A stretch of 64,000 nucleotides of DNA from an uncultured Tolumonas sp. (GTDB lineage: Bacteria; Pseudomonadota; Gammaproteobacteria; Enterobacterales; Aeromonadaceae). Position 1 is the first letter of the stretch. Each line of letters begins with the position of its first letter. The DNA is taken from NCBI RefSeq assembly GCF_963678185.1, contig NZ_OY782757.1, positions 3,614,501 to 3,678,500 on the forward strand. Direction: 5' to 3'. Below are positions 7,926 to 37,932 of the stretch, piece by piece. Position numbers and translations under genes: made by a program. A model generated the notes under the pieces. That model worked only from the letters and a program-made list of their open reading frames with translations. It was not told the DNA's origin and ran no database searches.

Positions 7926-7952
7926 TAAAGATTTTTCTACTATTACCGATAA
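7926..7952 (+). promoter_or_regulatory. Sigma-28 (FliA) promoter of the first flagellin gene
   Basis: TAAA (7926-7929), 15 bp, then ACCGATAA (7945-7952): all but one base of the consensus TAAA-N15-GCCGATAA. The predicted transcript starts near 7960, giving a leader of about 60 nt before the flagellin ATG at 8021. Confidence 0.9.
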
Positions 7953-9433: not shown

Positions 9434-10288
9434 ATGTCTATGTATATCAATACCAACGTATCCTCGTTGAATGCTCAGCGCAATATGTCTAATGCCAGTA
9501 AATCACTGGATACTTCTTACACTCGTTTAGCATCTGGTTTACGAATCAACAGCGCTAAAGACGATGCGGCCGGTTTGCAGATCTCAAATCGTTTGACCTC
9601 TCAGGTCAATGGGTTGGATCAAGGTAATCGTAATGCGAATGACGGTATTTCTATGGCACAAACGGCTGAAGGTGCAATGGATGAAGTTACAACCATGCTG
9701 CAACGTATGCGTACTTTGTCCCAACAATCTGCCAATAGCTCAAATAATACTGATGACCGTACAGCAATCCAAGCTGAGGTAAATCAGCTGTCATCTGAAA
9801 TCGACCGTATTTCTTCAGATACCACTTTTGGTGGTAAGAAAATTCTTGATGGTTCATTTAACGGTGATTTCCAGGTTGGTGCGGATGCTAACCAAAAGAT
9901 TTCATTTGCAATTTCATTTGCGCTCACTGTTGATGGTATTGCAGGCTCTGATTCTACAATATCTAGTTTTGCCAGTGCGGATGGTGGTATTGATGTATCA
10001 AGTGCATCAGGTGCACAAAGTGTTCTGGCAAACGTTGATAAAATGATCAAAGCGGTAGATTCTAAACGTGCGGAGCTTGGTGCGGTACAGAATCGTCTGG
10101 ATTCGACCATTCGAAACCAATCTAATATTTCTGAAAACGTCAGTGCTGCACGTTCTCGTATTCGTGATGCTGATTTCGCAACTGAAACAGCAAACATGAC
10201 TAAACAGAATATTTTACAACAAGCTTCATCAACCGTATTGGCTCAGGCTAACCAAAGACCTCAGTCCGCATTGTCTCTGTTAGGCTAA
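9434..10288 (+). CDS. Flagellin, second copy
   Basis: Second filament subunit, 284 residues, about 95 percent identical to the first copy by eye (differences scattered and conservative, e.g. Ser30Thr, Ile58Val, Gly128Ser, Ala278Ser). D0/D1 ends are intact and the central region is equally short. It ends LSLLG, one Gly shorter than copy 1. Nucleotide identity is lower, mostly at third positions, so the duplication is not very recent or conversion is incomplete. Followed after 28 bases by flaG without a terminator, so flaG may be co-transcribed. Corresponds in position to flaB of Aeromonas. Confidence 0.96.
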
Positions 10289-13000: not shown

Positions 13001-15073
13001 ATGACTAAATTAAATGATGTTATTGCTCAGACTGAAAATAGATTAGAGCAAATAAATGAACAGTTAAAACAAAATATTGCTATGCAGGATATATTGCCAT
13101 TGCGGTTTGAGAGAAATATTGCTTTTATGGAGCAATATTTGCCTAATATCGCCGCCGAATATAAAAACTATCAGCCTAAAAAATCATTTGAATTTTTTTG
13201 TACTGACAATGGTGAGCCTAATCTCAGATGGTTAAATAATGCAGAGCATTTTTATGGAGAGAGTCCATTTAATGAATGTCATGAGCAGCTTGATCAAGTT
13301 TTGAGTAGTGCAAGTCTATTGCGTTTCAATATGAATGTGGAGGATGATTACTTTAATCAACAACATATTCAATATATGAACAGATTAGTATCTGAGAATC
13401 AAAAAATAAAAGCTGAATATCCATTGGCTGAACAGGTTCCTGAATCAATACCTCTGTGTTTAATGTTCGGTGTTGGTTTAGGTTACCAACTGGGGTATTT
13501 ATATGAAAAATGCACACCTGCAAACATCTTTATTTTTGAACCAGATGCAGATTTATTTTATGCGTCACTATTTACTTTTGAATGGTCAGATCTTCTTAAT
13601 TACATTTTGAGTAAAAACTTAGGCGTGCATTTTTTCATCGGGCAAAAAGCAGATGAAGTTATTTTAGATTTACGTGCAGTAGTTACAGTAAAAGCCCCTT
13701 TTATTTGTGCAACGACATTTGGCTTTGTTCATTATTATTCAGAAGAATTGATAAAACTGCAAAAAAAAGTTGCTAGTGAGTTTTATCTGTTGAGTATGGG
13801 GTGGGGCTTCTTCGATGATAATCTCTTTTCGCTTTCTCACAGTCTGCATAACTTAGAAAATGGTGTCTCTTTTCTAAAGAAAAATAAACAATTACCAGTG
13901 CTGTTGAAAAACATTCCTGTTTTTATTGTTGCTAATGGTCCGTCGCTGGATTCTGCAATTGATTTTATTATTAGAAATCATAAAAAAATCCTGATTGTTG
14001 CTTGTGGTACTGCCGTCACTGCACTTTATCGAGCTGGTATAAAACCAGATATCTATATTGCAGTTGAACGAGTGACTGTTGTTCCTGATTCTTTACGAGA
14101 GATTAATGCTACTGATTTTCTTAAAGATATCTTGTTGATTGGCCCAGATATATTACATCCTGATTGTCAGCAGTTTTTTGATAAGTCGATTTATGCACTG
14201 AAAGCGGATGAGCCGATGTTTTCTTTGCTATTTGCCAATACTAATATTACCGATGAAGTTAAAAAGATTGCTTTCATTAACCCCCTTGTTGGTAATGCGG
14301 GGGTTAGTATTCCGCTGCATTTAGGTTTTGAACGGCTTTATTTTGCTGGTTTAGATAATGGTTTTAAATCAAAAGATCATCATCATTCAAAATACAGTTT
14401 GTATTATGATGAATCAGGTGAGACTAAGCAGCAGTTTAAGTTTATGGCTTTAGCGCAGGGAAGTCATATTCTTCCTGGTAATTTTGGCGGCGAGGTCATA
14501 TCTAACTCTCTTTTTTCTGCCTCTGTCATGATGTTGGACGTTGCTGTTAGTCATTTTCCCCAGGCCAGATGCTTTAATTGCAGTGACGGAGCGGCTATCA
14601 AGGGGGCAAACCCGTTAAATATTCAGGATATCGATTTAACGGATGAGCCTGAACTGGATAAAAAAGAGATCATCCGGGTTTTAGTGGATGAAATGTCTGC
14701 CCCTGTTGCTGTCAGTCGGGCAGAAATACAAAAATATATGGATAATGAGTTTTTCGACTACTTTATCAATAAAATTAAAGATGAGTGGTCAGCTTTACCA
14801 CCAGAGAGATTATTGGTTGTTCAAATAATGCAAACGCAAATGGATTATCTTGCACAAATAGCGCTGAGTCGTCAGCGGCATATTTCGAATGTGTTATTTG
14901 GTACCTTTAGTTCGGTATTTACATTAATTACGCATACACTATATGCAATCGAAGATGAAACCACAGCAATCACTGCGGTGAGTCGATTGCGGCCTATTGT
15001 GATTGAATTTATGGATACCATCCAAGCACTGTATCACCGCGGTTTAGATATGATCCAGGGTAAGCATTTCTGA
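13001..15073 (+). CDS. maf1: Motility accessory factor Maf-1, flagellin pseudaminic acid transferase
   Basis: Maf proteins transfer activated pseudaminic (or related nonulosonic) acid onto flagellin Ser/Thr. The 690-residue product has a long helical N-terminal part, a glycosyltransferase-like middle with LMFGVGLGYQLGYLYEK (about 150-165) and IFIFEPDADLFYASL, then the DUF115/MAF core beginning VFIVANGPSLDSAIDFI near residue 306 with PDIYIAVER near 350. Position 7 bases after the fliT-like gene and downstream of fliS matches Maf-1 of Aeromonas. Most likely co-transcribed with fliD-fliS. Confidence 0.9.
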   Translation: MTKLNDVIAQTENRLEQINEQLKQNIAMQDILPLRFERNIAFMEQYLPNIAAEYKNYQPKKSFEFFCTDNGEPNLRWLNNAEHFYGESPFNECHEQLDQVLSSASLLRFNMNVEDDYFNQQHIQYMNRLVSENQKIKAEYPLAEQVPESIPLCLMFGVGLGYQLGYLYEKCTPANIFIFEPDADLFYASLFTFEWSDLLNYILSKNLGVHFFIGQKADEVILDLRAVVTVKAPFICATTFGFVHYYSEELIKLQKKVASEFYLLSMGWGFFDDNLFSLSHSLHNLENGVSFLKKNKQLPVLLKNIPVFIVANGPSLDSAIDFIIRNHKKILIVACGTAVTALYRAGIKPDIYIAVERVTVVPDSLREINATDFLKDILLIGPDILHPDCQQFFDKSIYALKADEPMFSLLFANTNITDEVKKIAFINPLVGNAGVSIPLHLGFERLYFAGLDNGFKSKDHHHSKYSLYYDESGETKQQFKFMALAQGSHILPGNFGGEVISNSLFSASVMMLDVAVSHFPQARCFNCSDGAAIKGANPLNIQDIDLTDEPELDKKEIIRVLVDEMSAPVAVSRAEIQKYMDNEFFDYFINKIKDEWSALPPERLLVVQIMQTQMDYLAQIALSRQRHISNVLFGTFSSVFTLITHTLYAIEDETTAITAVSRLRPIVIEFMDTIQALYHRGLDMIQGKHF

Positions 15074-15081
15074 GGTTAATA

Positions 15082-15858
15082 TTGTCTGTGTTAGCTGAAC
15101 AATGGCGATCAGTCGGTATCGAGCAAGGTGATACCGTATTGATTCACGCAAATAGTATCCGGGCAATGGTGGCGCTCAGACGCGCGGGTGTTTCGGCCAC
15201 TCCTGAGAATATATTGGCTTCATTTATTGATGCTGTTGGTGATACCGGCACCCTGCTGTTTCCATTGTTTAACTTCGGTTTTTCATCGGGGCAACCGTTT
15301 GATCTCAGAACAACACCTTCGCAGATGGGAGCCTTATCGGAAGCTGCGCGTTTGCACCCAGTAGCGATCAGAACGGCTCATCCGATCTATTCTTTTGCGG
15401 TAATCGGGCCACAAAAAGAGCGGTTTGCTCAGTGCGAAAATATCAGTGGTTATGCGGCCGATTCGCCTTTTGGTTTATTGAAAGAATTAGGCGGAAAAAT
15501 TGCGTTGCTTGATGTGAATGATCAAGGTGCTATGACCTATTACCATCATATTGAAGAGATAATGCGAGTGGATTACCGCTATTTTAAATTCTTCACCGGT
15601 AATTATACCGATGCTTCTGGTCATACATCGAGTCGAGAATATTCACTTTATGTTCGTGATATTGATCGAGGGGTTGTCACTGATGTCGTTAATGCGGGGG
15701 AGTTATTGTGGCAGCAAGGCTTGTATCATGGCGATCGCCCCAATCAGAAAACTGGGTTACGCTGGATATATGCAACCGAAATGTTTAATGCAATAAGCAC
15801 ACTAATAAAACAAAATAAGGCAGAAGGCATGCTTTATAGAATCGAAAAAAATGATTGA
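15082..15858 (+). CDS. AAC(3)-family N-acetyltransferase of the glycosylation island
   Basis: 258 residues, starting at a TTG (15082) with TGAGG 6-7 bases upstream. The protein matches the AAC(3)/YokD acetyl-CoA transferase fold: GIEQGDTVLIHANSIRAM at the start, DAVGDTGTLLFPLFNF near residue 50, and RTAHPIYSFAVIG near residue 98, the conserved HP-x-x-S-F active-site segment, followed by GGKIALLDVND and YHHIEE. The family is named for aminoglycoside resistance, but many members sit in surface-sugar loci and presumably acylate amino sugars. Its position between Maf-1 and a DUF4910 gene points to glycan modification. The substrate is unknown. Confidence 0.78.
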   Translation: MSVLAEQWRSVGIEQGDTVLIHANSIRAMVALRRAGVSATPENILASFIDAVGDTGTLLFPLFNFGFSSGQPFDLRTTPSQMGALSEAARLHPVAIRTAHPIYSFAVIGPQKERFAQCENISGYAADSPFGLLKELGGKIALLDVNDQGAMTYYHHIEEIMRVDYRYFKFFTGNYTDASGHTSSREYSLYVRDIDRGVVTDVVNAGELLWQQGLYHGDRPNQKTGLRWIYATEMFNAISTLIKQNKAEGMLYRIEKND

Positions 15859-17152
15859 GCACAACGAGTTGGGTACAAAAATGTATACGCTGGCAGAACG
15901 TTTATGGCCAATTTGCCGCAGTATTACGGGGGCGGGCGTCAGAGAAACCCTTAAGATCTTACAAACGGAATTACCTGAATTACACATTTGTGATGTGCCA
16001 TCGGGAACATCAGTATTTGATTGGACCATTCCTCAAGAATGGATCATCCGAGATGCTTATATTGAAGACCCGAATGGGCGGCGTATCGTTGATTTCAAAA
16101 CTAATAATTTACATATTGTCGGTTACTCAATTCCTACTAATTGCGTTTTATCCTTAGAAGAATTACAGCCTTATCTTTATTCGTTACCAGAGCAGCCTGA
16201 TGCAATCCCTTATGTCACGTCATATTACTCTCCTCGGTGGGGGTTTTGTCTTTCACATGCGCAGCGTGAATCATTATTACCGGGGCAATATAAGGTTTTT
16301 ATCGATAGTGAATTATTCGCTGGCAGTTTGAACTATGGCGAATGTTATTTGCCGGGGGAATCAGAAGAAGAAATATTACTTTCTACCTATATTTGTCATC
16401 CCTCGATGGCTAATAATGAGTTATCCGGTCCGGTGGTTACAACTTATCTGGCGAACTGGCTGAAATCTGCACCCCGTAAATATAGTTATCGGATTGTTTT
16501 TATACCTGAAACAATCGGATCTATTACTTACCTTTCATTTCATCATCAAATCATGAAACAGCGCACTATTGCTGGTTTTGTGGTGACTTGTGTGGGCGAT
16601 GACAGAACTTATTCTTTTATGCCAACACGGCAAGGTGATCGCTTGGTTGATCGGGTGGCCCGTCATGTCCTTAAATTTATTGCACCGACATTTAAGCAAT
16701 ATTCATTTTTAGATCGGGGTAGTGATGAACGGCAATATTGTAGTCCACTGATTAACTTACCTGTTGCGTCTATCATGCGCAGTAAATATGGCTGTTATCC
16801 GGAATATCATACGTCGCTTGATAATATGTCGCTTATCTCTGTGGAAGGGTTACAAGGCGGTTTCAATGCTTTACAACAAGCATTATTAGTATTAGAGCGG
16901 GATCGCTATCCACAGGTGACATTATGTTGTGAACCGCAATTGGGGAAACGCGGGTTATATCCAACTATCAGCACGCGTGACAGTACCTGGGCTACGCGAA
17001 AAATGATGAATTTGTTAGCTTATGCAGATGGTTCTATGAGTTTGCTGGGCATGGCTGAGTTTTTTAATGTGTCATTTTTTGAACTGGATAAGTTGTGCCA
17101 GCAATTAGAAGAAGAGGGGTTAGTCGCCACCTCTCCCCATGCTGTGAGCTAA
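15851..17152 (+). CDS. DUF4910-type aminopeptidase-like zinc hydrolase
   Basis: 433 residues, overlapping the previous gene by 8 bases, so translationally coupled to it. The sequence resembles DUF4910/DUF2172 proteins, which have an M28-aminopeptidase-like core: GECYLPGESEEEILLSTYICHPSMANNELSG (about residues 160-195) holds likely metal ligands His and Asn/Asp-Glu, and EYHTSLDN near residue 318 another. A C-terminal winged-helix-like tail (LLGMAEFFNVSFFELDKLCQQLEEEGLV) is visible. Such genes occur in polysaccharide and flagellar-sugar clusters. Whether the enzyme cleaves an amide on a sugar or a peptide is unknown. It ends 4 bases inside the convergent pseI. Confidence 0.72.
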   Translation: MIEHNELGTKMYTLAERLWPICRSITGAGVRETLKILQTELPELHICDVPSGTSVFDWTIPQEWIIRDAYIEDPNGRRIVDFKTNNLHIVGYSIPTNCVLSLEELQPYLYSLPEQPDAIPYVTSYYSPRWGFCLSHAQRESLLPGQYKVFIDSELFAGSLNYGECYLPGESEEEILLSTYICHPSMANNELSGPVVTTYLANWLKSAPRKYSYRIVFIPETIGSITYLSFHHQIMKQRTIAGFVVTCVGDDRTYSFMPTRQGDRLVDRVARHVLKFIAPTFKQYSFLDRGSDERQYCSPLINLPVASIMRSKYGCYPEYHTSLDNMSLISVEGLQGGFNALQQALLVLERDRYPQVTLCCEPQLGKRGLYPTISTRDSTWATRKMMNLLAYADGSMSLLGMAEFFNVSFFELDKLCQQLEEEGLVATSPHAVS

Positions 17153-18186
17153 CGCAGCCATGCCCAATTTAATGGCACATTCGCGTCTTGATTCTGAGTT
17201 GCTATTTTGCCAATGACGTTATCTAAATCGGCTGGCGGCAAACCAAGTCCCGGCCGGACTGACTTGACATGTTCTGCGGTAACGACATCGCCCGCTTTGA
17301 CTGATTTCACTAGATAAAGTGAACGTCTAAATTGCACATTCTGTTTTTCTGCTGGAGTTGGCGTGTAATTTACTGCTCCCAAACTGGCCCATGATGTTTT
17401 GCTGTCGTTGACTAACTGTGTCAATTCCGCTGGTTCTAAAGAGAATGCTGAATCTGGCCCGCCATCGGCACGACTGAGCGTAAAATGTTTTTCAATCAGT
17501 GATGCACCGAGTGCGGTTGCCGTGATCGCGGTGGTGTTGCCAATCGTGTGATCAGATAACCCCACTTCACAGCCAAAAAGCTGACGCATGTGCGGAACGG
17601 TGCGCAGATTGTACTCTTCCGCCGGTGCTGGGTAACCGCTTATGCAATGCAGCAAAGCTACATCGCCGCAGCCATATTTATGCGCAGTATTGAGGGCGGC
17701 ATCAATCTCGGCTTCATTCGCCATACCGGTTGAAATAATCAGTGGTTTTTGAGTTTCAGCCGCATAGCGGATCAGCGGTAAATCAATTGCTTCGAAAGAG
17801 GCAATTTTATAGGCCGGGGCATCGAGTTCCGCCAGTAAATCAATGGCTGTGAAATCAAAGGGCGAGCTGAAAATAGTAAGTCCGATCTCTTTGGCTAATG
17901 TGAACAGCGGTTTATGCCAATCCCATGGCATATGCGCCCATTGGTATAAATCAAACAGGCGTTTGCCATCCCATAACCCACCATGGATCATAAATTCAGG
18001 GCGGTCACTATCAAGGGTAATGGTATCTGGGCGATAGGTTTGTAACTTGACGGCTGATGCACCGGCTTGCTTCGCGGCGCGGACAATATCCATTGCCCGC
18101 TCAAGGCTGCCATTATGATTAGCCGACAGCTCAGCAATGACGTAGGGTGGTTGCATCAGGCTGATTTCGCGATCAGCAATTTTCAT
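17149..18186 (-). CDS. pseI: Pseudaminic acid synthase PseI
   Basis: PseI condenses 2,4-diacetamido-2,4,6-trideoxy-L-altrose with phosphoenolpyruvate to give pseudaminic acid. The 345-residue product belongs to the NeuB family: YVIAELSANHNGSLERAMDIVRAAKQAGASAVKLQTY (about 15-50), then a TIM barrel with FSSPFD, GLSDHTIG near 220 and ALGASLIEKHFTLSR near 238, and a C-terminal SAF (antifreeze-like) domain. It overlaps the end of pseG by 14 bases and forms the operon pseF-pseG-pseI on the minus strand. AGGAG lies upstream. A NeuB-type sialic or legionaminic synthase is the alternative; the surrounding pse genes favour PseI. Confidence 0.92.
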   Translation of the reverse strand: MKIADREISLMQPPYVIAELSANHNGSLERAMDIVRAAKQAGASAVKLQTYRPDTITLDSDRPEFMIHGGLWDGKRLFDLYQWAHMPWDWHKPLFTLAKEIGLTIFSSPFDFTAIDLLAELDAPAYKIASFEAIDLPLIRYAAETQKPLIISTGMANEAEIDAALNTAHKYGCGDVALLHCISGYPAPAEEYNLRTVPHMRQLFGCEVGLSDHTIGNTTAITATALGASLIEKHFTLSRADGGPDSAFSLEPAELTQLVNDSKTSWASLGAVNYTPTPAEKQNVQFRRSLYLVKSVKAGDVVTAEHVKSVRPGLGLPPADLDNVIGKIATQNQDANVPLNWAWLR

Positions 18187-19216
18187 TTGTTAGCTCCTGC
18201 TGCTCAGGCTTATTGCCTTTCAAAATATACTCAATTAACCGGGGTACACCGTCGCCATCAATAAATGTTTGTCCCCGTGAAAAATAGCTATCGGCATTTA
18301 TTTTCAGATCCTGAAGGGCGGTAGCAAGTTTTTCTGGAATTGATAAATCTGACAATGTCAGACGCTCACAAAGCTGGAAATGAGCTAGCACGTCGTCGTT
18401 AAATTTCTGATTTTCGGCGATAGGAATAACGATCGCTGGTAGTCCGATACAACAACGCTCCCATGTCATGCCGCCAGCTGCACCAATGGAAAAATCGTGT
18501 TCGTTCATCAGTGTCGCCATGTCGCCATAGTGAGGTAACAAGGTTACGTTGAGCGCAGTTTCCGTTTGCCACTGCTGTAATAACGGCCAGTCGGAGTTTG
18601 CTGCGCCTGCGACTACTGTCCAGGAAAGTTGATGCGCATCTTGAATTTTATCTAGTGATTTCACCGTTGATAACGTGGCGTGTGCCGGATCGGCACCACC
18701 AAAACAGATCAGGCCTTTTTGCCATGTTTGGCAAGATGTGCGTTGCAGCTGCTTATACTCTTTGCGTAGTAATGCGTAGCGGCAACCCAGTAATAAGCGG
18801 CATTCTGGATTGATGATGTTGACGTAATCCGCAGGCGTTCTCAGTGGGCCTTGGTCTAACAGCAAATCGGCAACATGAGGTCGGTCAGCTAAGTCATCTA
18901 ATACTAAAAGGTGGGAAGCGAGTGGTCTGGCTTTTCTCTCCCATTCTGCGTCGAGTGCATAGTGATCAACGACAATCCAGTCGGGTTGGAGTTGCGCTAT
19001 CAGAGCAAATTCATGGTCGATATCTGTTGGGCAGAGCAAGCTATGTTTTTTATCTAAAATGAGCTGGTGTAACCGTTCCGGCAGCGGATAGCAGAGAAAC
19101 CAAGAGGTAACGTCAAATTCTTGCAACGCATCAGCAATGACTAAGCAACGCATCAGATGGCCAGTACCAATCTGGTCGTTGGCATCGAGCCGGAATAAAA
19201 CGTTACTGGTTGTCAT
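18173..19216 (-). CDS. pseG: UDP-sugar hydrolase PseG
   Basis: PseG removes UDP from UDP-2,4-diacetamido-2,4,6-trideoxy-beta-L-altropyranose, the step before PseI. From the ATG at 19216 the product has 347 residues: VLFRLDANDQIGTGHLMRCLVIADAL at the N-terminus (G-x-GH-x-x-R motif), DHYALDAEWE near residue 100, and the MurG-like C-terminal half with GGMTWERC near 250. The frame is open upstream for 35 more codons, but those lie inside pseF and read as nonsense, so the later ATG is preferred. It overlaps pseF by 14 bases. Confidence 0.9.
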   Translation of the reverse strand: MTTSNVLFRLDANDQIGTGHLMRCLVIADALQEFDVTSWFLCYPLPERLHQLILDKKHSLLCPTDIDHEFALIAQLQPDWIVVDHYALDAEWERKARPLASHLLVLDDLADRPHVADLLLDQGPLRTPADYVNIINPECRLLLGCRYALLRKEYKQLQRTSCQTWQKGLICFGGADPAHATLSTVKSLDKIQDAHQLSWTVVAGAANSDWPLLQQWQTETALNVTLLPHYGDMATLMNEHDFSIGAAGGMTWERCCIGLPAIVIPIAENQKFNDDVLAHFQLCERLTLSDLSIPEKLATALQDLKINADSYFSRGQTFIDGDGVPRLIEYILKGNKPEQQELTNENC

Positions 19217-19901
19217 GCTGTTGTAATGCCTGATATAGCAGTTCGGCCATTTGCCAGTCTTCTTCAGTATCAATATCAACGACACGATAGCGCGGCAAAA
19301 TATGTGCGATACCGTTGCCACTGAACACTCCTTTGCCTGTCAGCCACGCATCGCGGGTGCCCCAATAAAACTGTCCGGCATCCTGATAGGCTGGTTCCAA
19401 ATCCTGACTGCGCTTGATGATATTTTCAGGTTGGAATGGCACTGCAAATCCACCATCAATGAGTCTTAGCGCCCGTTGGATCGGGAAGCCATACGATGCG
19501 GCTGAAAATACATAATCAGCCTGTTTGTTTTGTAGTTTCTGGAACGCAGCCGCTAAGTCAGCCGCCTGTAGCAAAGGGGTCGTGGCATAAATACAACAGT
19601 AAGCGTCAGAGTTGAACCCTAACGAGTCGAGCTGTTTAATGGCATCAACCGTCACCGCAGTGGTGCCAGTATAATCATCTGCCAGCGACGGATTACGCAT
19701 AAAGGGCGCTTCGGCGCCTAATTGCCGTGCGGTCTCTGCAATTTCTACATCATCGGTTGAGACAACTATATGTTCAAAACAGCCACTGGCTTGTGCTGCC
19801 TTAATAGCATACGCGAGCATAGGTTGCCCACAAAATGAGCGCAGATTTTTCTTTGGAATTCGTTTACTGCCACCACGGGCGGGAATAATGGCGATGGGCA
19901 T
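19203..19901 (-). CDS. pseF: CMP-pseudaminic acid synthetase PseF
   Basis: PseF activates pseudaminic acid with CTP, the last step before the Maf transferases. The 232-residue product begins MPIAIIPARGGSKRIPKKN, the nucleotide-binding motif of CMP-sialate synthetases, and contains STDDVEIAE (about 50) and the acidic VDIDTEEDW near the C-terminus. A second in-frame ATG lies at 19907, but GAGGAG directly abuts it and is better spaced for 19901. First gene of the minus-strand pseFGI operon, divergent from the pseH-like gene. Confidence 0.92.
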   Translation of the reverse strand: MPIAIIPARGGSKRIPKKNLRSFCGQPMLAYAIKAAQASGCFEHIVVSTDDVEIAETARQLGAEAPFMRNPSLADDYTGTTAVTVDAIKQLDSLGFNSDAYCCIYATTPLLQAADLAAAFQKLQNKQADYVFSAASYGFPIQRALRLIDGGFAVPFQPENIIKRSQDLEPAYQDAGQFYWGTRDAWLTGKGVFSGNGIAHILPRYRVVDIDTEEDWQMAELLYQALQQHDNQ

Positions 19902-19935
19902 CTGCATCTCCTCATGACATATAGTCTGATATGAC

Positions 19936-19962
19936 TAAAGTGTTTGTGGTAACAGCCGATAA
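19936..19962 (+). promoter_or_regulatory. Consensus sigma-28 promoter of the pseH/acyl operon
   Basis: TAAA (19936-19939), 15 bp, then GCCGATAA (19955-19962): an exact match to the FliA consensus, as good as or better than the two flagellin promoters in this window. It reads toward the gene at 20071 with a leader of about 100 nt. It puts the six-gene run 20071-25215 under flagellar late-gene control. Confidence 0.87.
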
Positions 19963-20070: not shown

Positions 20071-20610
20071 ATGCAGTCACCGCTCTGCTTTTCCCGATAT
20101 GGTATTACGTTGAAAGAATTACAACGTGATGAGATTGAAATGGTTCGGCAATGGCGTAACGATCCTAAAATTGCAGGGTTGATGTTAGATCAAACTCACA
20201 TTACGGAAGAGATGCAAAAACAATGGTTTGAGCGCATGTCACAATCTGATTGCCAATATTATTTTTTGGCTTGGTTTAAGGATCAACCAATTGGTGTCGC
20301 TTCTTTGATTCAGATCGATCGCGAACAGCAGACGTGTGAACCAGGCATGTATATCTATATTGATGAATACCGTAATAATGTGGTGCCGTTCTGCGTGGCA
20401 TTTGCCTTAAATGATCTGGCATTTGAGGTGTTCAGCTTACAGACGCTGTATGGAAAAATTTTTGCAGATAACGCGGCTTCAGTTCGTTTCCATGAAGCCT
20501 GTGGTTATACCAAATATAGTGAGCGTGCAGATAATCTGGGGTTGTTTAGTTTGACACAACCTGACTATCTGATTGCCAGAAATAAAATTTCCCGATTTAT
20601 CAGGTATTAA
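20071..20610 (+). CDS. pseH: GNAT acyltransferase, PseH-like
   Basis: PseH N-acetylates UDP-4-amino-4,6-dideoxy-N-acetyl-beta-L-altrosamine. The 179-residue product is a GNAT protein: ITLKELQRDEIEMVRQWRNDP at the start (the RimJ/PseH-type opening), YYFLAWFKDQPIGVASL (about 70-86), and the acetyl-CoA loop region LYGKIFADNAASVRFHEACGYTKY (about 127-150). It is the only PseH candidate in the window and completes the pathway. Because it heads an operon with an acyl carrier protein, it might use an acyl group other than acetyl. That is inference. Ribosome site is weak. Confidence 0.8.
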   Translation: MQSPLCFSRYGITLKELQRDEIEMVRQWRNDPKIAGLMLDQTHITEEMQKQWFERMSQSDCQYYFLAWFKDQPIGVASLIQIDREQQTCEPGMYIYIDEYRNNVVPFCVAFALNDLAFEVFSLQTLYGKIFADNAASVRFHEACGYTKYSERADNLGLFSLTQPDYLIARNKISRFIRY

Positions 20611-20611
20611 T

Positions 20612-20845
20612 ATGAAATCTTTAGAACAAATTTTTGCCGACAGCCTTGCCATCAATCTGAGTGATATCAGCGATGCGTTGACCTATCAGAGCATTCCTCA
20701 GTGGGATTCGGTTGCACATATGACGCTGATTGCGGCGGTGGAAGATGAATACGGCATTATGTTGGATACCGACGATATTATTGATATGAGCTCTGTTGGA
20801 AAAGCCAAAGCGATCCTGCAGAAATACGGTGTTGAAATCGCATGA
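20612..20845 (+). CDS. Acyl carrier protein-like
   Basis: 77 residues from the ATG at 20612, one base after the previous stop. The sequence SIPQWDSVAHMTLIAAVEDEYGIMLDTDDI has the phosphopantetheine-type DS motif (Ser33) preceding helix II and the acidic helix that docks partner enzymes. It is a specialised ACP, unlike the DSLD motif of housekeeping AcpP. Overlaps the next gene by 4 bases (ATGA). It presumably carries the acyl chain handled by the neighbouring FabG, ligase and Lux-type proteins. A frame open upstream inside the previous gene is not considered part of it. Confidence 0.85.
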   Translation: MKSLEQIFADSLAINLSDISDALTYQSIPQWDSVAHMTLIAAVEDEYGIMLDTDDIIDMSSVGKAKAILQKYGVEIA

Positions 20846-21591
20846 ATTTATTGTTGTCCGGCAAGAAAGTGCTCATCACCGGCGCAGGCAGAGGGATCGG
20901 CAAAGCGATAGCGCATCTTTTTGCGAAACATGGCGCAGAGATTTTTCTTAATGGACGCAACGAAACAGCGATTGCGCAGTTAAAAGATGAGCTGGTGGCA
21001 ACTTATTCGGCTACCGTTCATCTTGCCGTTTTTGATGTGGCTGATACCGAATCGGTCAAACAAGGTTTTCGCACACTGTTTGCGGTAACTAAATCGTTGG
21101 ATGTGCTGGTTAACAATGCGGGCATTCTGGATGACGCGTTGATTGGCATGGTGTCGCAGGCGCAAATCCAGCAAACGTTTTCAGCAAATACCTTTAGTGT
21201 GCTTTATTGCTCACAATATGCCGCCCGCATGATGCAACGCAATAAACAGGGCAGCATTATCAATATGGCTTCGATTATTGGGCGGGTCGGTAATGCAGGG
21301 CAGGCTGTTTATGGTGGCAGCAAATCCGCTGTGATTGGCATTACCCAGTCGCTAGCGAAGGAGTTGGCTGCACAGAATATTAGAGTTAATGCCATTGCTC
21401 CTGGGTTCATTGATACTGACATGGCGCACTCGCTGACTGATGATAAATTTCAGCAACGGCTCGATAGCATTGCGATGGGGCGCATCGGTTTGCCGGAAGA
21501 AGTGGCTAAAGTCGCATTATTCTTGGCCAGCGATCTGTCGTCATATGTGACTGGGCAGGTTATTGGTGTGGATGGAGGAATGCTGATTTGA
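20842..21591 (+). CDS. FabG-like short-chain dehydrogenase/reductase
   Basis: 249 residues of the classical SDR type: nucleotide motif ITGAGRGIGKA (about 11-21), NNAG (about 90), catalytic Ser near 142 (NMASIIGR) and Y-x-x-x-K in VYGGSKSAVIG (about 155), then the proline-rich VNAIAPGFIDTDMA. The closest family is 3-oxoacyl-ACP reductase FabG. Next to an ACP it would reduce a 3-oxoacyl-ACP to the 3-hydroxyacyl form. The start codon overlaps the acp stop and the end overlaps the ligase start (TTGA). It is not the housekeeping fabG, which normally sits in a fab cluster. Confidence 0.85.
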   Translation: MNLLLSGKKVLITGAGRGIGKAIAHLFAKHGAEIFLNGRNETAIAQLKDELVATYSATVHLAVFDVADTESVKQGFRTLFAVTKSLDVLVNNAGILDDALIGMVSQAQIQQTFSANTFSVLYCSQYAARMMQRNKQGSIINMASIIGRVGNAGQAVYGGSKSAVIGITQSLAKELAAQNIRVNAIAPGFIDTDMAHSLTDDKFQQRLDSIAMGRIGLPEEVAKVALFLASDLSSYVTGQVIGVDGGMLI

Positions 21592-22940
21592 GCTTATGGC
21601 AGCAAATTTCCCAAAATCAGGGCGCGGCTATTTTTGAGCAAGAACAGACATTCAGTTATGCCCAGCTCTGCCTGGCTGCAATAGCACGTGCAGAAGGCTT
21701 GGGGGCCACTCGCCAGCTGGTGTTATTACTGGCGGATAACTCTTCCGACACGCTGATAACCTATTTGGCCTGTCTGGTCGCGAAGCATCCGGTCATATTG
21801 TTATCGTCTTCGTTATCGGATGATGTGGTGCACCAGTTGATCGAGACTTATCAACCGAACTGGCTTTTGCGCCCTCATCATGCTGCTGTTCAGCTCACTA
21901 CGAAACAGCATCACTTTGCGGATGAACTGGCGGTGATGCTAACGACATCAGGCTCCACGGGAAATGCCAAGCTAGTTCGGCTAAGTGAAGCCAACCTTGC
22001 GGCTAATGCCAATTCTATCTGCCAATATTTAGGCATGAGACCCGATGATCGGGCGCTGACGGCGCTGCCTTTTGCTTACTCCTATGGTCTATCTGTCATT
22101 AACAGTCATTTGCTTTGCGGCGCATCCATTACCATGACGAATGATGGGCCGTTAGAGCGTGGGTTTTGGCAGTTACTGAAAACCCAGCCCATCACACAGC
22201 TGACGGGTGTGCCTTATAGTTACCAAATTTATGAGCAGCTACGTCTGCGGCGGCAAAAATGGCCACATCTGCGGATCATGACACAAGCTGGTGGGCGCAT
22301 GCCGCCTGAACGCGTGCTTGATTATGCCCGTTGGTGTGCGGATGAACAGATTGCCTTTTATGTGATGTATGGGCAGACCGAAGCAACGGCGCGGATGACT
22401 TATTTGCCACCAGAATTGGCGTTGCAGCATCCTGACAGCATCGGTGTTCCTATTCCACAAGGTGAGATGCTGATTCTCGATGAACAGGGTAATTCGCTAT
22501 CAGAGGGTGTTGGGGAGCTCTGTTATCAGGGGCCGAATGTGATGCTGGGTTATGCCAGCCAACTGAGTGATTTAGCTTTACCTGCGAGTGAACCTTGCTT
22601 ACGTACCGGCGATTTAGGTTATCGTAACGCGCAAGGTTTGTTATTTGTAACGGGGCGTTTGAAACGGCAAATTAAACTGGCTGGAATTCGCTGGCAACTT
22701 GATGCGTTTGAGCAGCAGTGCAAGCAGCATGGCTGGGATGTCGTTTGTTGTGGTGAAGATCAGAAATTACGTGTGGCCTGTTTGTGCGCTGATCATACTG
22801 AGCCACTGACTGCTCATTTACGCGAAGTACACCAACTACATCCGAGCTTATTTCAAGTCATAGTGGCTGATACTATTCCACGAACTCATGCTGGTAAAAT
22901 TGATTACCCAGCGCTTAATGCACAGTTTGGTGCTGCATGA
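21588..22940 (+). CDS. AMP-dependent acyl (carboxylate) ligase
   Basis: 450 residues with the adenylate-forming core: P-loop-like LTTSGSTGNAKLVRLSE (about 120-136), ALPFAYSYGLSV (about 160), MYGQTEATARM (about 258, motif A5) and the hinge LRTGDLGYRNAQGLLFVTGRLKRQIKLAG (about 335-365). Shorter than typical acyl-CoA synthetases (500-570), with a reduced C-terminal domain. It probably activates a fatty or short carboxylic acid and loads it on the ACP two genes upstream. Starts at TTG 21588 with GGAGGA upstream, overlapping the previous stop. Confidence 0.83.
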   Translation: MSLWQQISQNQGAAIFEQEQTFSYAQLCLAAIARAEGLGATRQLVLLLADNSSDTLITYLACLVAKHPVILLSSSLSDDVVHQLIETYQPNWLLRPHHAAVQLTTKQHHFADELAVMLTTSGSTGNAKLVRLSEANLAANANSICQYLGMRPDDRALTALPFAYSYGLSVINSHLLCGASITMTNDGPLERGFWQLLKTQPITQLTGVPYSYQIYEQLRLRRQKWPHLRIMTQAGGRMPPERVLDYARWCADEQIAFYVMYGQTEATARMTYLPPELALQHPDSIGVPIPQGEMLILDEQGNSLSEGVGELCYQGPNVMLGYASQLSDLALPASEPCLRTGDLGYRNAQGLLFVTGRLKRQIKLAGIRWQLDAFEQQCKQHGWDVVCCGEDQKLRVACLCADHTEPLTAHLREVHQLHPSLFQVIVADTIPRTHAGKIDYPALNAQFGAA

Positions 22941-24010
22941 TGTCTGCACTGCTCGAACAACTCATGCAAGCACCTGTTTATCTGTTACCGCAGGCAGAAA
23001 AAGAGGCATTATTACTGCCTCGGCTCAATGAGCTGACGCACTGGCATGATCAACATTGTGAGCCGTTTCATCATTTAATGCAGGCAACCCAAGCACAGTT
23101 GCAAGCGACTGATTATGGCGCTTTGCCCTATGTTGCTGTGCGGTTATTTAAACATCGCCTATTAAGCAGCGTGCCTCATGATGCCATCTTTAAAACTCTC
23201 ACTTCATCAGGCACCACCGGCGCGGTGTCTCGCATTGTGCTCGATCGCGACAGTGCCGCGCTGCAAAGTAAAGTGTTAGTCAAAATCATGCAGGAATATA
23301 TCGGTAAACAACGCCTACCGATGCTGCTAGTAGAACAACCAGCTCTCATTCAAAACCGTAGCGGTTTTTCTGCTCGTGGCGCTGGTGCATTGGGGCTGTC
23401 GTTTTTAGGGCGTGATCATCACTATGCACTAGACGAACAGATGCAACCGAATTGGCCTGTGATTGAGGCGTTTTGCGAGAAATATGCTGATCAGCCGGTG
23501 TTCCTGTTTGGTTTTACCTTTATGGTTTGGCAATGCTTATTGGAGCCATTGAAAAAACGCAGCATCAAATTACCACTCTCAAGCGGTGTGTTATTCCACA
23601 GCGGTGGCTGGAAAAAATTGGAGCATTTAGCCGTGAGCGCCAGCGACTTTAATCAACGCTGTGCCGATGTGCTGGGTATTCAGCAGGTACACAATTTTTA
23701 TGGCATGGTGGAACAAACCGGCGCTATTTTTGTCACTTGCGAGCATGGGCATCTGCATACGCCAGTGATGGCTGATGTGCTGATCCGAGATCCAAAAACT
23801 CTTACGGTTTTACCGCATAAACAGCAAGGGCTGATTCAGGTGCTTTCCGCTTTACCGCAAAGCTACCCCGGTCATAGTTTGTTGACGGAAGATCTCGGCA
23901 CTTGTCTGGGGGAAGATGATTGCCCCTGCGGTCGAAAAGGTCGTTATTTTGTCGTGCATGGTCGTTTGCCGAAAGCGGAGGTGCGAGGATGCAGCGACAC
24001 ATTTCGTTAG
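22937..24010 (+). CDS. LuxE-like acyl-protein synthetase
   Basis: 357 residues of the LuxE/acyl-protein thioester synthetase family, which adenylates a fatty acid, takes it on a cysteine and passes it to LuxC. Visible: TLTSSGTTGAVSRIVLDRD (about 95-113, adenylate motif), LFHSGGWKKLE (about 215), NFYGMVEQTGAIF (about 255), and the C-terminal Cys-rich CPCGRKGRYF-VVHGRLPKAEVRGCSD. No luxA or luxB is present in the window, so this is not a light-producing system. Overlaps the ligase by 4 bases and luxC-like by 22. Confidence 0.86.
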   Translation: MMSALLEQLMQAPVYLLPQAEKEALLLPRLNELTHWHDQHCEPFHHLMQATQAQLQATDYGALPYVAVRLFKHRLLSSVPHDAIFKTLTSSGTTGAVSRIVLDRDSAALQSKVLVKIMQEYIGKQRLPMLLVEQPALIQNRSGFSARGAGALGLSFLGRDHHYALDEQMQPNWPVIEAFCEKYADQPVFLFGFTFMVWQCLLEPLKKRSIKLPLSSGVLFHSGGWKKLEHLAVSASDFNQRCADVLGIQQVHNFYGMVEQTGAIFVTCEHGHLHTPVMADVLIRDPKTLTVLPHKQQGLIQVLSALPQSYPGHSLLTEDLGTCLGEDDCPCGRKGRYFVVHGRLPKAEVRGCSDTFR

Positions 24011-25215
24011 CCACAACTGAGATAACACCAGTCAAGATGCCACATTGGGATGACGCACTATTTGCTTCTATTGAAGTGGTTTGTCCGCGCAATACCACTT
24101 GGTCTGCATTTGAATTAGCGCCTTTAGCGGTGTTCAGCGAATCCGTGATCCATTTTGTGACTGAGTTGTCACGTCGCTTGTTACAGTTGGCGAATAGTCA
24201 GCCGGATTTAGCTGCGTTAGGTTTTTTTCTCCGACCTGCAGCATTGCACCAAGCTCTGCAACAATATAAGCACACTGATCTCATGCCTCTGGGGCTGACG
24301 TTTCATTTAGTGCCATCAAACGTACCAACCGTCGCTTTTTACTCTTGGCTGGCCGCACTACTGCAGGGAAATAGTGCCATAGTGCGTTTATCTTCACGCA
24401 GTAATCAGGTTCAGGAAGCCATGCTCAATTTGCTAAACCAAATGTTTAGTGAGGTGGAATGGCACGCTATTGCTGCTCGTGTTCGTTTTGTGCGGTATCC
24501 GCACAACGATGCCATCACCGAATATTTCTCGGCAGTGTGTTACTCCCGGGTAATTTGGGGCGGTGACAGCACTATTCATGAAATCAGAAAAATTCCGCTG
24601 TCAGCGAAAGCAAAAGAGCTCTGTTTTCCTGAACGTAAATCTGTTGCTGTGCTCGATAGCCATTATCTGAACGAATTAAGCGAAAGTGAATTTACGCAAC
24701 TGATCCAACGTTTAGGTTTGGATATCAGTCAATTCAATCAGCAAGCCTGCGCTTCCCCTGTTTTATTGGTTTGGAGAGGCGAGCCGTCAATAGCATTATG
24801 GCAACGCTTTTGGTTGGCACTTTCATGTCAATTTCCTGATGAGTTTGCCGATAAGTTAGAACAGACGGTAAACCTACAGTTAGCGGCTTGTGATGGTTTG
24901 ATTTCTCGGGTGGTACAGTTTGGTAATCTAACTATCGCTGAGATCAGTCATGCTGCAGATGTAACCTGCTGTGGATTTGGTGACGGTTTACTGGTTTATC
25001 AAATCGTTGACGAATTAGATGATTGGTTAACACAGCCTGCATCGTTCCAGACCTGTGTTTATGTTGGCGCCAATAAAACGCATTTTGTGGAGTTGGTAAA
25101 AAAAAGCTTAACCATGCGTATTGATAGAATCTGTTCTGCCGGGCAGGCATTAGCATTCGATTGGGTTTGGGATGGTCATGACATGTTGAGAGAGTTTAGC
25201 CGAGTATTGGGTTGA
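23989..25215 (+). CDS. LuxC-like acyl-CoA/acyl-protein reductase
   Basis: 408 residues from the ATG at 23989, which has a strong GGAGG about 8-12 bases upstream; the frame is open further up inside luxE-like but without reason to start there. LuxC reduces an acyl thioester to the aldehyde with NADPH. The aldehyde-dehydrogenase-like signature LGLTFHLVPSNVPTVAFYSWLAALLQGNSAIVRLS (about 90-125) and QQACASPVLLVWRG (about 246-262), which contains the likely catalytic Cys, are visible. Last gene of the six-gene coupled operon. The product would be a reactive fatty aldehyde or, with a dehydrogenase, an alcohol; its use here is unknown. Confidence 0.86.
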   Translation: MQRHISLATTEITPVKMPHWDDALFASIEVVCPRNTTWSAFELAPLAVFSESVIHFVTELSRRLLQLANSQPDLAALGFFLRPAALHQALQQYKHTDLMPLGLTFHLVPSNVPTVAFYSWLAALLQGNSAIVRLSSRSNQVQEAMLNLLNQMFSEVEWHAIAARVRFVRYPHNDAITEYFSAVCYSRVIWGGDSTIHEIRKIPLSAKAKELCFPERKSVAVLDSHYLNELSESEFTQLIQRLGLDISQFNQQACASPVLLVWRGEPSIALWQRFWLALSCQFPDEFADKLEQTVNLQLAACDGLISRVVQFGNLTIAEISHAADVTCCGFGDGLLVYQIVDELDDWLTQPASFQTCVYVGANKTHFVELVKKSLTMRIDRICSAGQALAFDWVWDGHDMLREFSRVLG

Positions 25216-25329: not shown

Positions 25330-26283
25330 ATGAAATTAAGTGTTTTAGTCCCGGTTTTTAATTTATCTGCTTATGTTGCGGAATGTCTGATTAGCATATT
25401 GGAACAACAAGCTGACTTTGAATTTGAAGTGATCGCAATTGATGATTGTTCTACAGATGACTCATTTGCCATATTGAAAAATATAGCGCAGCGATATCCG
25501 GCATTAGTATTGTTACGCAATGAGACTAATCTGGGGTTAGCCAAAACACAAAAACGTCTGCTTCAGGCAGCGAAAGGTGATTATATTGCCTATCTCGATG
25601 GTGATGATGTTGCGTTACCTGGAAAATTGCAGGTACTAGCTGATTATTTAGATTTGTACCCAGATTGTGCGCTGGTCTATCACGAAGCAGAGGTCTTTGA
25701 TAGTGACACTGGTAATGTGACGTCACATTACAGCCGTGACTACTATAACGCTGCGTATATCCCTCAAAAAGCAACCGCTGAACATCTGATCCGCTACGGG
25801 TGTTTCCCTAACGCCAGTTCGATTGCGTTCCGGCGACACGAGCATCTGACTGAAGCAGTCGACGAACAATGTAAAATCATACTCGATCACCCATGGCATA
25901 TTCTCAATGCTTTATACGGTAAAGGCAGTGTTGATTTTATTCCTGAGGTTTATGGCCGCTACCGGATTCATAGCCAGAGTTTTGGCGGACAAACTAAACG
26001 CAGACCTGAACGCCGCGAACAAGTGTTAGCCGATCAATTGCGGGCTTGTGACAATGCCCGCGCCTTTTGTATTGATGAAGAGATTATTGCTCAAGGTAAG
26101 GCGCATTATCGGTTTGCGACAGCACTTTATTTTTTGAAGCAAGGTGATGAAGCTCGTTTTCAGCGTTTTATCGAAGCATCTGGCACAGATCACTGCTTTT
26201 TTGATGCCCGGCATCGTTTCGCGTGGGAACAACGAGATACCCCTGCCGTCGTAGCACAGCAACTTTTTGGAATAACAGCATGA
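25330..26283 (+). CDS. Family 2 glycosyltransferase
   Basis: 317 residues. The GT-A start MKLSVLVPVFNLSAYVAECLISIL, the EVIAIDDCSTDDSFAIL motif (about 37-52) and GDYIAYLDGDDVALPGKLQVL with the DxD metal site (about 86-105) place it in GT2. The C-terminal third is variable. It would add one sugar to a lipid-linked or flagellin glycan; donor unknown. It lies 114 bases after the acyl operon, with no clear terminator between, and overlaps glf by 4 bases. AT-richer than the acyl genes. Confidence 0.88.
   Translation: MKLSVLVPVFNLSAYVAECLISILEQQADFEFEVIAIDDCSTDDSFAILKNIAQRYPALVLLRNETNLGLAKTQKRLLQAAKGDYIAYLDGDDVALPGKLQVLADYLDLYPDCALVYHEAEVFDSDTGNVTSHYSRDYYNAAYIPQKATAEHLIRYGCFPNASSIAFRRHEHLTEAVDEQCKIILDHPWHILNALYGKGSVDFIPEVYGRYRIHSQSFGGQTKRRPERREQVLADQLRACDNARAFCIDEEIIAQGKAHYRFATALYFLKQGDEARFQRFIEASGTDHCFFDARHRFAWEQRDTPAVVAQQLFGITA

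Positions 26284-35713: not shown

Positions 35714-37932
<2,219 letters not shown>

What the first reader, a model, noticed from the sequence alone, without database searches (positions are those of the whole stretch)
20071..25215. Flagellar-regulated LuxC/LuxE/ACP acyl module in a pseudaminic acid island
Seen: six genes with gaps of +1, -4, -4, -4 and -22 bases encode a PseH-like acyltransferase, an ACP, a FabG-like reductase, an adenylate ligase, a LuxE-like acyl-protein synthetase and a LuxC-like acyl reductase. No luxA/luxB is present. Known: LuxE and LuxC activate a fatty acid and reduce it to an aldehyde, and ACP/FabG make or hold hydroxyacyl groups. Inference: the operon makes an unusual acyl or aldehyde-derived group for the flagellin sugar, perhaps replacing the N-acetyl of pseudaminic acid. 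ACP and Lux-type genes may have been noted in aeromonad flagellar islands, but I do not know of a defined product.
Basis: partly seen in the sequence, partly recalled or inferred. Interest (0 to 1): 0.75.

Follow-up and report, generated by a model that had tools for sequence, protein, structure and literature searches.

The report
Acyl-making genes for a flagellar sugar
Six overlapping genes beside the flagellin genes most likely make a small hydroxy-acid on a carrier protein and attach it to the sugar that coats the flagellum; the gene set is known from Aeromonas, but its product has not been defined.

Summary
In detail: six intact genes at 20071-25215 with gaps +1, -4, -4, -4, -22, behind a sigma-28-like site. 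The arrangement is not new: Aeromonas 'Group II' flagellar islands have the same order, with only a 'liposugar' suggested as product (PMC7874193, passages and sections).

I propose the product is a small hydroxyacyl group. (1) The enzyme kinds match Vibrio cholerae O1 tetronate synthesis: carrier, 2,4-dihydroxybutanoate ligase, Fe-alcohol dehydrogenase, acyl-protein synthase/acyl-CoA reductase, acetyltransferase (PMC12208996, PMC9201469). Across 118 LuxE loci, Fe-dehydrogenase (22) and close FabG homologues (66) did not co-occur; 7 of the 22 have a weaker SDR nearby. (2) The module's PseH-like enzyme has lost CoA-pyrophosphate contacts and the general-acid Tyr of PseH but keeps the pantetheine-contacting Asn, as expected for an ACP donor. 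(3) The unexplained 376.14 Da Pse of A. piscicola AH-3, which carries this module, fits Pse with one acetyl and one dihydroxybutyryl, 376.148; its glycan's 'unknown 102 Da' is nominally the same acyl.

No enzyme activity has been shown; isomers are not excluded.

The parts
13001..15073 (+). maf-2-like flagellin nonulosonic acid transferase
   Evidence: Pfam Maf_flag10_N and MptE-like
15082..15858 (+). AAC(3)-like acyltransferase, possible second acyl-exchange enzyme
   Evidence: Pfam Antibiotic_NAT
15851..17152 (+). DUF4910/DUF2172 protein, Cj1295-like aminopeptidase fold
   Evidence: Pfam DUF4910 342 bits, DUF2172 130 bits; Cj1295 is described as an aminopeptidase-like protein of the C. jejuni flagellin locus; the DUF2172-Cj1295 link is recalled
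17149..18186 (-). pseI, pseudaminic acid synthase
   Evidence: NCBIfam TIGR03586 496 bits, over cut-off
18173..19321 (-). pseG, UDP-sugar hydrolase (true start may lie inside)
   Evidence: NCBIfam TIGR03590 278.6 bits, over cut-off
19203..19907 (-). pseF, CMP-Pse synthetase
   Evidence: NCBIfam TIGR03584 322.9 bits, over cut-off
19936..19962 (+). sigma-28-like promoter TAAAGTGT-N11-GCCGATAA
   Evidence: one mismatch to TAAAGTTT-N11-GCCGATAA (consensus recalled); 6 matches in window vs 0.85 expected; same site in L183
20071..20610 (+). PseH-like GNAT acyltransferase, proposed acyl-ACP donor variant
   Evidence: TIGR03585 85.2 bits, below cut-off 93.1; CoA contacts lost; model matches PseH 4ri1 TM 0.78
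20612..20845 (+). acyl carrier protein
   Evidence: Pfam PP-binding; DS serine
20842..21591 (+). FabG-like SDR, proposed aldehyde/semialdehyde reductase
   Evidence: Pfam adh_short_C2 222 bits
21588..22940 (+). AMP-forming ligase, proposed hydroxyacyl-ACP ligase
   Evidence: Pfam AMP-binding 157.9 bits
22937..24010 (+). LuxE-like acyl-protein synthetase
   Evidence: Pfam LuxE 167.7 bits; best solved match 7xc6_E; Cys conserved
23989..25215 (+). LuxC-like acyl reductase; start codon overlaps LuxE catalytic Cys codon
   Evidence: Pfam LuxC 100.8 bits; model matches 7xc6 LuxC; Cys254 invariant
25330..26283 (+). GT2 glycosyltransferase, 317 aa, in the place of Aeromonas fgi-1
   Evidence: Pfam Glycos_transf_2; homologue after LuxC in L052, L057
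35714..36868 (-). pseC-like aminotransferase
   Evidence: Pfam DegT 371 bits
36865..37890 (-). pseB-like dehydratase
   Evidence: Pfam Polysacc_synt_2 359 bits

Best explanation
The six genes make a short hydroxyacyl group and place it on the 4-amino group of the UDP-sugar precursor of pseudaminic acid (N-7 of the finished sugar) instead of acetyl. Proposed steps: LuxE adenylates one carboxyl of a small dicarboxylic acid (most likely malate) and passes it through its C-terminal Cys to LuxC. LuxC reduces it to the semialdehyde and the FabG-like SDR reduces that to the hydroxy-acid (2,4- or 3,4-dihydroxybutyrate). The AMP-forming ligase loads this acid on the ACP, and the PseH-like GNAT moves it from ACP to the amino sugar. 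PseG, PseI and PseF then give CMP-Pse with one acetyl and one dihydroxybutyryl, which Maf attaches to flagellin. Shown here: intact genes, conserved catalytic residues, conserved order, near-exclusive use of a FabG homologue or an Fe-ADH, changed donor site in the GNAT. Inferred: every reaction, the malate start and the acyl identity.
For: Same enzyme kinds as V. cholerae O1 tetronate genes VC0248-0252: carrier RfbK; ligase RfbL for 2,4-dihydroxybutanoic acid; Fe-ADH VC0250; 'acyl protein synthase/acyl-CoA reductase' RfbN VC0251; acetyltransferase VC0252. Similar layouts (ACP-ligase-FeADH-LuxE::LuxC fusion, several beside nonulosonic acid genes) occur in Vibrio and others. In 118 loci, Fe-ADH near LuxE in 22, FabG homologue over 100 bits in 66, both in 0, neither in 30 (Fisher p 6e-10; see the threshold caveat below). 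Module PseH, 29 examined including the window: Gly103 kept in 1, basic residue at 133 in 0, Tyr138 in 0, Asn131 in 29. Ten PseH of same-family islands without the module (of 13 fetched; 3 had no separately called PseH): Gly103 in 10, Tyr138 in 7 (residue roles from PMC4363471, passages). The 11 PseH-like proteins seen beside LuxE in the family are all below the TIGR03585 cut-off, while 13 of 61 genomes have one above it. A. piscicola AH-3 has this module and an unexplained 376.14 Da Pse; calculated 376.148. All 35 genomes with LuxE also have a LuxC match.
Against: No V. cholerae sequence was examined; the tetronate pathway itself is largely a proposal from sequence in the papers I saw. The module LuxE forms its own clade, separate from the fused RfbN-like clade. 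The Fe-ADH/FabG exclusion depends on the 100-bit threshold: counting any SDR hit within five genes, 7 of the 22 Fe-ADH loci also have one (p 0.0014). FabG is missing between ACP and ligase in 4 of 25 pse-type loci (L059, L068, L070, L074), and neither reductase was seen in 30 of 118 loci. L170 has a GNAT near its ACP that keeps the CoA loop and Tyr138, one of the 29 module PseH keeps Gly103, and 4 of the 10 comparison PseH lack a basic residue at 133. 376.14 fits 14 of 1617 tried substituent sets, 12 of one formula, so isomers are open. A review calls the AH-3 lateral Pse derivative 'probably phosphorylated'. The window's own glycan is unmeasured.
Confidence: 0.52

Rival explanations
1. The genes feed a long-chain fatty acid or fatty aldehyde into the glycan (a 'liposugar'), as suggested for Aeromonas and enterobacteria.
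For: LuxE/LuxC of luminous bacteria act on long fatty acids; authors' suggestion; nearest solved structure is the LuxC-LuxE fatty acid reductase 7xc6.
Against: The published AH-3 glycan masses (376, 162, 203, 80, 102) leave no room for a long chain: Pse376 + 2 Hex + 3 HexNAc + phosphate + 102 sums to 1491.49 against 1491.5 reported. Scores are far below the luminescence equivalogs: LuxE 63 vs 550, LuxC 36.5 vs 750 bits.
Confidence: 0.1
2. Another small acyl is made: 4-hydroxybutyryl from succinate, or a lactoyl/3-hydroxypropionyl, glyceroyl or hydroxybutyryl/glycolyl set, by the same chemistry.
For: The route would work for any small dicarboxylic acid (inference); two lactoyl, propionyl+glyceroyl or glycolyl+hydroxybutyryl share the 376.148 formula.
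Against: 4-hydroxybutyryl with one acetyl would be 360.15, which is not the mass reported for AH-3; the others need both N-acetyls replaced.
Confidence: 0.2
3. The 376 Da sugar carries an O-methylglyceroyl group as in Campylobacter jejuni (di-O-methylglyceroyl at N-5, Cj1295-dependent), and the DUF4910/AAC(3) pair at 15082-17152, not PseH, does the swap.
For: Same formula as dihydroxybutyryl; a Cj1295-like gene and an N-acetyltransferase lie in the window island and the C. jejuni link is experimental.
Against: No FkbH-type glyceryl enzyme among the proteins scanned in the island; LuxE/LuxC have no evident role in that route; a DUF2172 gene was labelled in 5 of 118 module loci and AAC3 in 4 of 118.
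Confidence: 0.1
4. The acyl group goes on a later sugar of the glycan, and PseH uses acetyl-CoA as usual.
For: AH-3 has a distal unknown 102 Da moiety.
Against: The fgi-1 mutant, lacking the rest of the chain, still has the 376 Da Pse; PseH is the gene next to ACP in most pse-type loci and its CoA contacts are changed.
Confidence: 0.15

Closest known systems
Aeromonas Group II flagellar glycosylation island (A. piscicola AH-3, A. hydrophila ATCC 7966)
   Same: pseH, ACP, oxoacyl-ACP reductase, AMP synthetase, luxE, luxC, glycosyltransferase in the same order, pse genes at both ends, maf-2 near pseI.
   Different: The window has a DUF4910 and an AAC(3)-like gene between maf and pseI; its genome belongs to another genus than the g3 genomes, which I take to be Aeromonas.
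Vibrio cholerae O1 tetronate genes rfbKLMNO (VC0248-VC0252)
   Same: Carrier protein, ligase, acyl-protein synthase plus acyl reductase, dehydrogenase, acyltransferase, for acylating an amino sugar.
   Different: There the synthase and reductase are annotated as one protein and the dehydrogenase is iron-dependent; here they are separate and the reductase is FabG-like. The sugar is Pse, not perosamine.
Enterobacterial flagellar islands with Acp, LuxE, LuxC, CaiC, FabG (PMC4875605; Dickeya fkbM-luxC-luxE-fadD-tkt-fabG-acp, PMC7575072)
   Same: Same acyl core genes beside flagellin.
   Different: Dickeya type has vioA and split transketolase genes in the cluster; the similar locus L064 has no pse genes labelled other than a PseC-like aminotransferase.
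Luminous-bacteria fatty acid reductase LuxC-LuxE (PDB 7xc6)
   Same: Nearest solved relatives of both proteins; catalytic Cys kept.
   Different: No luxA match in the genome, and none of the luxA/luxB/luxD kind seen in the operon; separate clade.
PseH (PDB 4ri1, 4xpl)
   Same: GNAT fold, TM 0.78; pantetheine contact Asn131.
   Different: Lost Gly103, Lys133 and Tyr138 equivalents; below TIGR03585 cut-off.

Membership tests
Aeromonas Group II flagellar glycosylation island | pseBC and pseFGHI at two ends of a region of glycosyltransferases | tested here: met
   pseF/G/I at 17149-19907, pseB/C at 35714-37890, GTs between
Aeromonas Group II flagellar glycosylation island | ACP, oxoacyl-ACP reductase, AMP synthetase, luxE, luxC in order after pseH | tested here: met
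Aeromonas Group II flagellar glycosylation island | fgi-1 GT2 after luxC, 313-327 aa | tested here: inconclusive
   GT2 of 317 aa in place; Fgi-1 itself was not compared
Aeromonas Group II flagellar glycosylation island | maf-2 downstream of pseI | tested here: met
   maf-like gene 13001-15073, with two genes between it and pseI
Aeromonas Group II flagellar glycosylation island | heterogeneous glycan on polar flagellin | not testable with these tools
   no mass data for this organism
V. cholerae O1 tetronate pathway | carrier protein and hydroxyacid ligase | tested here: inconclusive
   both families present, specificity unknown
V. cholerae O1 tetronate pathway | acyl-protein synthase and acyl reductase in one protein (RfbN, as annotated; fused in the RfbN-like loci seen) | tested here: not met
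   separate genes, separate clade
V. cholerae O1 tetronate pathway | iron-containing alcohol dehydrogenase (VC0250) | tested here: not met
   FabG-like SDR instead
V. cholerae O1 tetronate pathway | tetronate product | not testable with these tools
   mass arithmetic on AH-3 only
Bacterial luminescence lux operon | luxA/luxB luciferase | tested here: not met
   no luxA match in the genome, without positive control
Bacterial luminescence lux operon | LuxE and LuxC at equivalog level | tested here: not met
   63.3 vs 550 and 36.5 vs 750 bits
PseH acetyltransferase (TIGR03585) | score over curated cut-off | tested here: not met
   85.2 vs 93.1 bits
PseH acetyltransferase (TIGR03585) | CoA pyrophosphate contacts and general acid | tested here: not met
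   Gly103, Lys133, Tyr138 all replaced in the window protein

The most novel reading that the evidence does not exclude
A LuxE/LuxC carboxylic-acid reductase, known from bioluminescence, works here on malate to build 2,4-dihydroxybutyryl(3-deoxytetronyl)-ACP, and a retooled PseH that no longer uses acetyl-CoA takes the acyl from ACP to make Pse5Ac7(deoxytetronyl), 376.148 Da. [quoted passage not shown]
Probability: 0.36. Interest if true: 0.75.

Novelty: new member of a known kind. Interest (0 to 1): 0.55.

Why it matters
The gene set was noted in flagellar islands in 2016 and 2021 papers with only a 'fatty acid' or 'liposugar' label. A defined product would explain two unexplained masses (376 and 102 Da) in the Aeromonas flagellar glycan and would give a job to LuxE/LuxC pairs outside bioluminescence. 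It would also identify a PseH subfamily that should not be annotated as an acetyltransferase. The prediction is exact to the mass and needs one deletion and one mass spectrum to test.

Tried and rejected
Luminescence: rejected, no luxA match and separate clade. Long-chain lipid: disfavoured by published masses. Direct orthology with RfbN-like fusions: rejected as a membership claim by the tree. FkbH/methylglycerate route: no such gene among the proteins scanned. Looking for V. cholerae O1 itself: the named scan and a search of 196 genomes of the genus of G045, taken to be Vibrio, gave RfbN-like fusions but none I could call V. cholerae, so no sequence of it was compared. Substrate prediction from the ligase: PDB matches were mixed (NRPS domains, oxalate, malonyl, D-alanyl ligases) and gave no specificity. 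Papers PMC3431630 and PMC3676071, cited by a review for the AH-3 and Shewanella masses, are not held. The tetronate/dihydroxybutyryl reading was not found in print: (dihydroxybutyr + pseudaminic) found 0 papers; (263 papers, 40 listed) none of the 40 listed shows 'tetron' or 'dihydroxybutan'. Of the papers listed (7; 3; 12 of 98), I opened the two island papers and the Dickeya paper; the rest were seen as listings only. This covers the open PMC library alone. On re-checking, the Fe-ADH/FabG exclusion proved to depend on the score threshold, and I lowered two odds slightly for it (0.55 to 0.52, 0.38 to 0.36).
Full report
What is there. Families: GNAT acyltransferase, ACP, FabG-like SDR, AMP-forming ligase, LuxE, LuxC. 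The LuxC start codon overlaps the codon of the LuxE catalytic cysteine. LuxE keeps its C-terminal Cys and LuxC keeps Cys254, invariant in 27 aligned LuxC-like proteins. Pfam covers only residues 91-260 of LuxC. A predicted model (mean pLDDT 81.7, 52 of 408 residues under 50) has the LuxC of the luminous LuxC-LuxE complex, 7xc6, as its best solved match. The window lies in a single-contig genome of 3.95 Mb. Ten other genomes of its genus were in the family sample. I take the family to be Aeromonadaceae because of the published island; no name was given.

Surroundings. Upstream lie flagellins, flaG, fliD and fliS (named by eye) and a maf gene. Then come an AAC(3)-like and a DUF4910/DUF2172 gene, and pseI-pseG-pseF on the other strand. 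Downstream are a GT2, a GLF-type mutase, a methyltransferase, further glycosyltransferases, asparagine synthase, pseC, pseB and a second Maf-like protein. In a same-genus genome without LuxE (L187, G846) the same place, between maf and rlmN, holds a different small pse island.

Promoter. TAAAGTGT-N11-GCCGATAA at 19936-19962 is one mismatch from the sigma-28 consensus (recalled) and lies 108 nt before pseH. The pattern has 6 matches in the window against 0.85 expected; two lie before flagellin genes. I scanned the window and 55 PseH-labelled ORFs; ten rows had a site with up to 4 mismatches. Among the seven other module loci of the family that I fetched, L183 (1 mismatch), L053 and L193 (2) and L057 (3) have one, and L052, L054 and L055 do not. 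Sites with 2-4 mismatches also turned up before L060, L072, L073 and L078, and one with 3 before the ordinary PseH of L187 (3 of 200 shuffles as good). This supports, and does not prove, flagellar control.

Already in print. Aeromonas Group II islands have pseH followed by ACP, oxoacyl-ACP reductase, AMP synthetase, luxE, luxC and fgi-1, with maf-2 near pseI; the group holds 98 strains, 97 of them with fgi-1 (PMC7874193; passages, sections 15 and 19 and part 1 of section 21 read). The authors suggest a liposugar. Enterobacterial islands have related genes (PMC4875605, passages; PMC7575072, passages). So the arrangement is known, and the product is not.

Distribution. LuxE was found in 35 of 295 genomes of the order, and every one also has a LuxC match; one further LuxC genome, G045, has a luxCDABEG-like operon (named by eye). 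I examined 33 of the 34 other LuxE genomes at up to 20 kb, one locus each; G127 was dropped because its contig is 4.4 kb, and the second LuxE region of G242 was not counted. PseH is in the core in 25 of 33. PseI and PseG are both labelled in 21 of 33, and a flagellin, fliD, fliS, flaG or maf gene in 18 of 33. In L065, without pse genes other than a PseC-like aminotransferase, a hexapeptide (PglD-like) acyltransferase precedes the ACP and the aminotransferase follows LuxC; L064 has a PglD-like gene (by similarity only), FkbM, ACP and an aminotransferase. In L066 the ligase is fused to LuxE. In the class, LuxE was found in 7 of 369 genomes, the window's included. Four of these (Kurthia, Ornithinibacillus, Ureibacillus, Metasolibacillus) have it beside pseG- and pseI-like genes, two of them with flagellin-like genes nearby.

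What the enzymes resemble as a set. In V. cholerae O1, VC0248-VC0252 are the tetronate genes (PMC3441752, introduction and passages). RfbL is given as the ligase for 2,4-dihydroxybutanoic acid and RfbK as the carrier (PMC12208996, passages). VC0250 is an iron-containing alcohol dehydrogenase, VC0251 an acyl protein synthase/acyl-CoA reductase and VC0252 an acetyltransferase (PMC9201469, one table passage). I did not examine any V. cholerae sequence. Loci with a like layout, ACP-ligase-FeADH-LuxE::LuxC, were found in Vibrio fortis, another Vibrio, Marinomonas and others, several of them next to nonulosonic acid genes. In 118 loci with a LuxE score over 200 (window not counted, L086 dropped), an Fe-ADH over 100 bits lies within three genes of LuxE in 22, a FabG homologue over 100 bits within five genes in 66, both in 0 and neither in 30 (Fisher p 6e-10, and 1e-6 within the fused clade). 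This depends on the threshold. If any SDR hit counts, 7 of the 22 Fe-ADH loci also have one (p 0.0014); with both enzymes sought within three genes at any score, 1 of 22 does (p 8e-5). My reading is that the two reductases fill one role, the reduction of the aldehyde that LuxC makes. A LuxE tree of 49 sequences puts separate LuxE, fused LuxE and luminous-like LuxE in three groups; the window works like the tetronate set but is not in the fused clade.

A changed PseH. The window PseH-like protein scores 85.2 bits against a cut-off of 93.1. In the family, 13 of 61 genomes have a PseH over the cut-off and 12 of 61 have LuxE. Only G844 has both, on different contigs. All 11 PseH-like proteins seen beside a LuxE there are below the cut-off; the twelfth, G845, sits on a contig without a PseH match. 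H. pylori PseH holds the CoA pyrophosphate by Gly103 and Lys133, uses Tyr138 as likely general acid, and touches pantetheine through Asn131 (PMC4363471, passages). Aligned to it, 29 module proteins have at 103: Ala 20, Pro 7, Ser 1, Gly 1; at 133: Ala 22, Ser 6, Gln 1; at 138: Asn 23, His 6; at 131: Asn 29. Of the 13 islands with an over-cut-off PseH that I fetched, ten gave a separate PseH ORF; L181, L182 and L189 did not and were left out. These ten have Gly103 in 10, Arg at 133 in 6 (Pro in 4) and Tyr138 in 7 (His in 3). Nine further GNATs near the kit in named genomes (one, L154, repeats L061) have Gly103 in 1 (L170, which also keeps Tyr138) and a basic residue at 133 in 1. Four more GNATs further from LuxE (L100, L119, L120, L139) have Ser, Asn, Ser, Ala at 103 and Arg, His, Arg, Gly at 133. 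Asn131 is present in all 54 rows. Pantetheine contact kept and pyrophosphate contact lost is what an ACP-bound donor would give. This is inference from sequence; the predicted fold is PseH-like (best match 4ri1, TM 0.78).

Mass. A. piscicola AH-3 carries the module. Its lateral flagellin has a single Pse derivative of 376 Da, and its fgi-1 mutant shows 376.1 Da on the polar flagellins. Pse with one acetyl and one C4H6O3 acyl (dihydroxybutyryl or O-methylglyceroyl) is 376.148. Of 1617 substituent sets tried, 14 lie within 0.05 of 376.14, and 12 of these share one formula. The glycan sums to 1491.49 with the 102 Da moiety taken as C4H6O3, against 1491.5 reported; the published 102 is nominal. 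Strains with single sugars of other masses (A. hydrophila AH-1, 403 Da; A. caviae, 373 Da in one review, and Pse5Ac7Ac in another) are named by the island paper as lacking glycosyltransferases between the pse genes; it does not say there that they lack the acyl genes. The primary AH-3 mass paper was not available, and a review calls the lateral sugar 'probably phosphorylated', which no set within 0.05 Da supports.

Conclusion. Best reading: malate or a similar diacid is reduced by LuxE/LuxC and FabG to a dihydroxy-acid, loaded by the ligase on ACP, and moved by the altered PseH to the Pse precursor. Which of the two N-positions is modified is inferred from PseH. The AAC(3)/DUF4910 pair could act at the other position, as the authors of PMC3068675 (passages) proposed for Cj1295 at C-5.

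Noticed in passing
window 15082-17152; L117, L121: An AAC(3)-like acyltransferase and a DUF4910/DUF2172 gene sit as a pair near pseI; the same pair stands beside ACP-ligase-FeADH-LuxE::LuxC in Treponema parvum (L117) and, without a called ACP, in a Lachnospiraceae record (L121).
   Followed up: partly
L064, L081, L082, L098-L102, L139, L141, L147, L157, L163, L168, L171: Split transketolase genes (N and C halves) lie inside or near many LuxE modules, suggesting that the aldehyde is sometimes extended by a C2 unit instead of only being reduced.
   Followed up: partly
L066 9438-12071: Ligase and LuxE are fused in one ORF of 877 aa.
   Followed up: no
L082, L137, L151, L162, L175-L177: A protein of about 595-620 aa lies next to a PseI-like synthase and the LuxE module; possible unusual nonulosonic acid route.
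   Followed up: no
L070, L074, L144-L146: A long Maf-like gene (about 1166-1210 aa) lies inside or right after the module.
   Followed up: no
window 8021-8878 and 9434-10288: Two very similar flagellin genes in tandem, with sigma-28-like sites upstream at 7926 and 9225.
   Followed up: no
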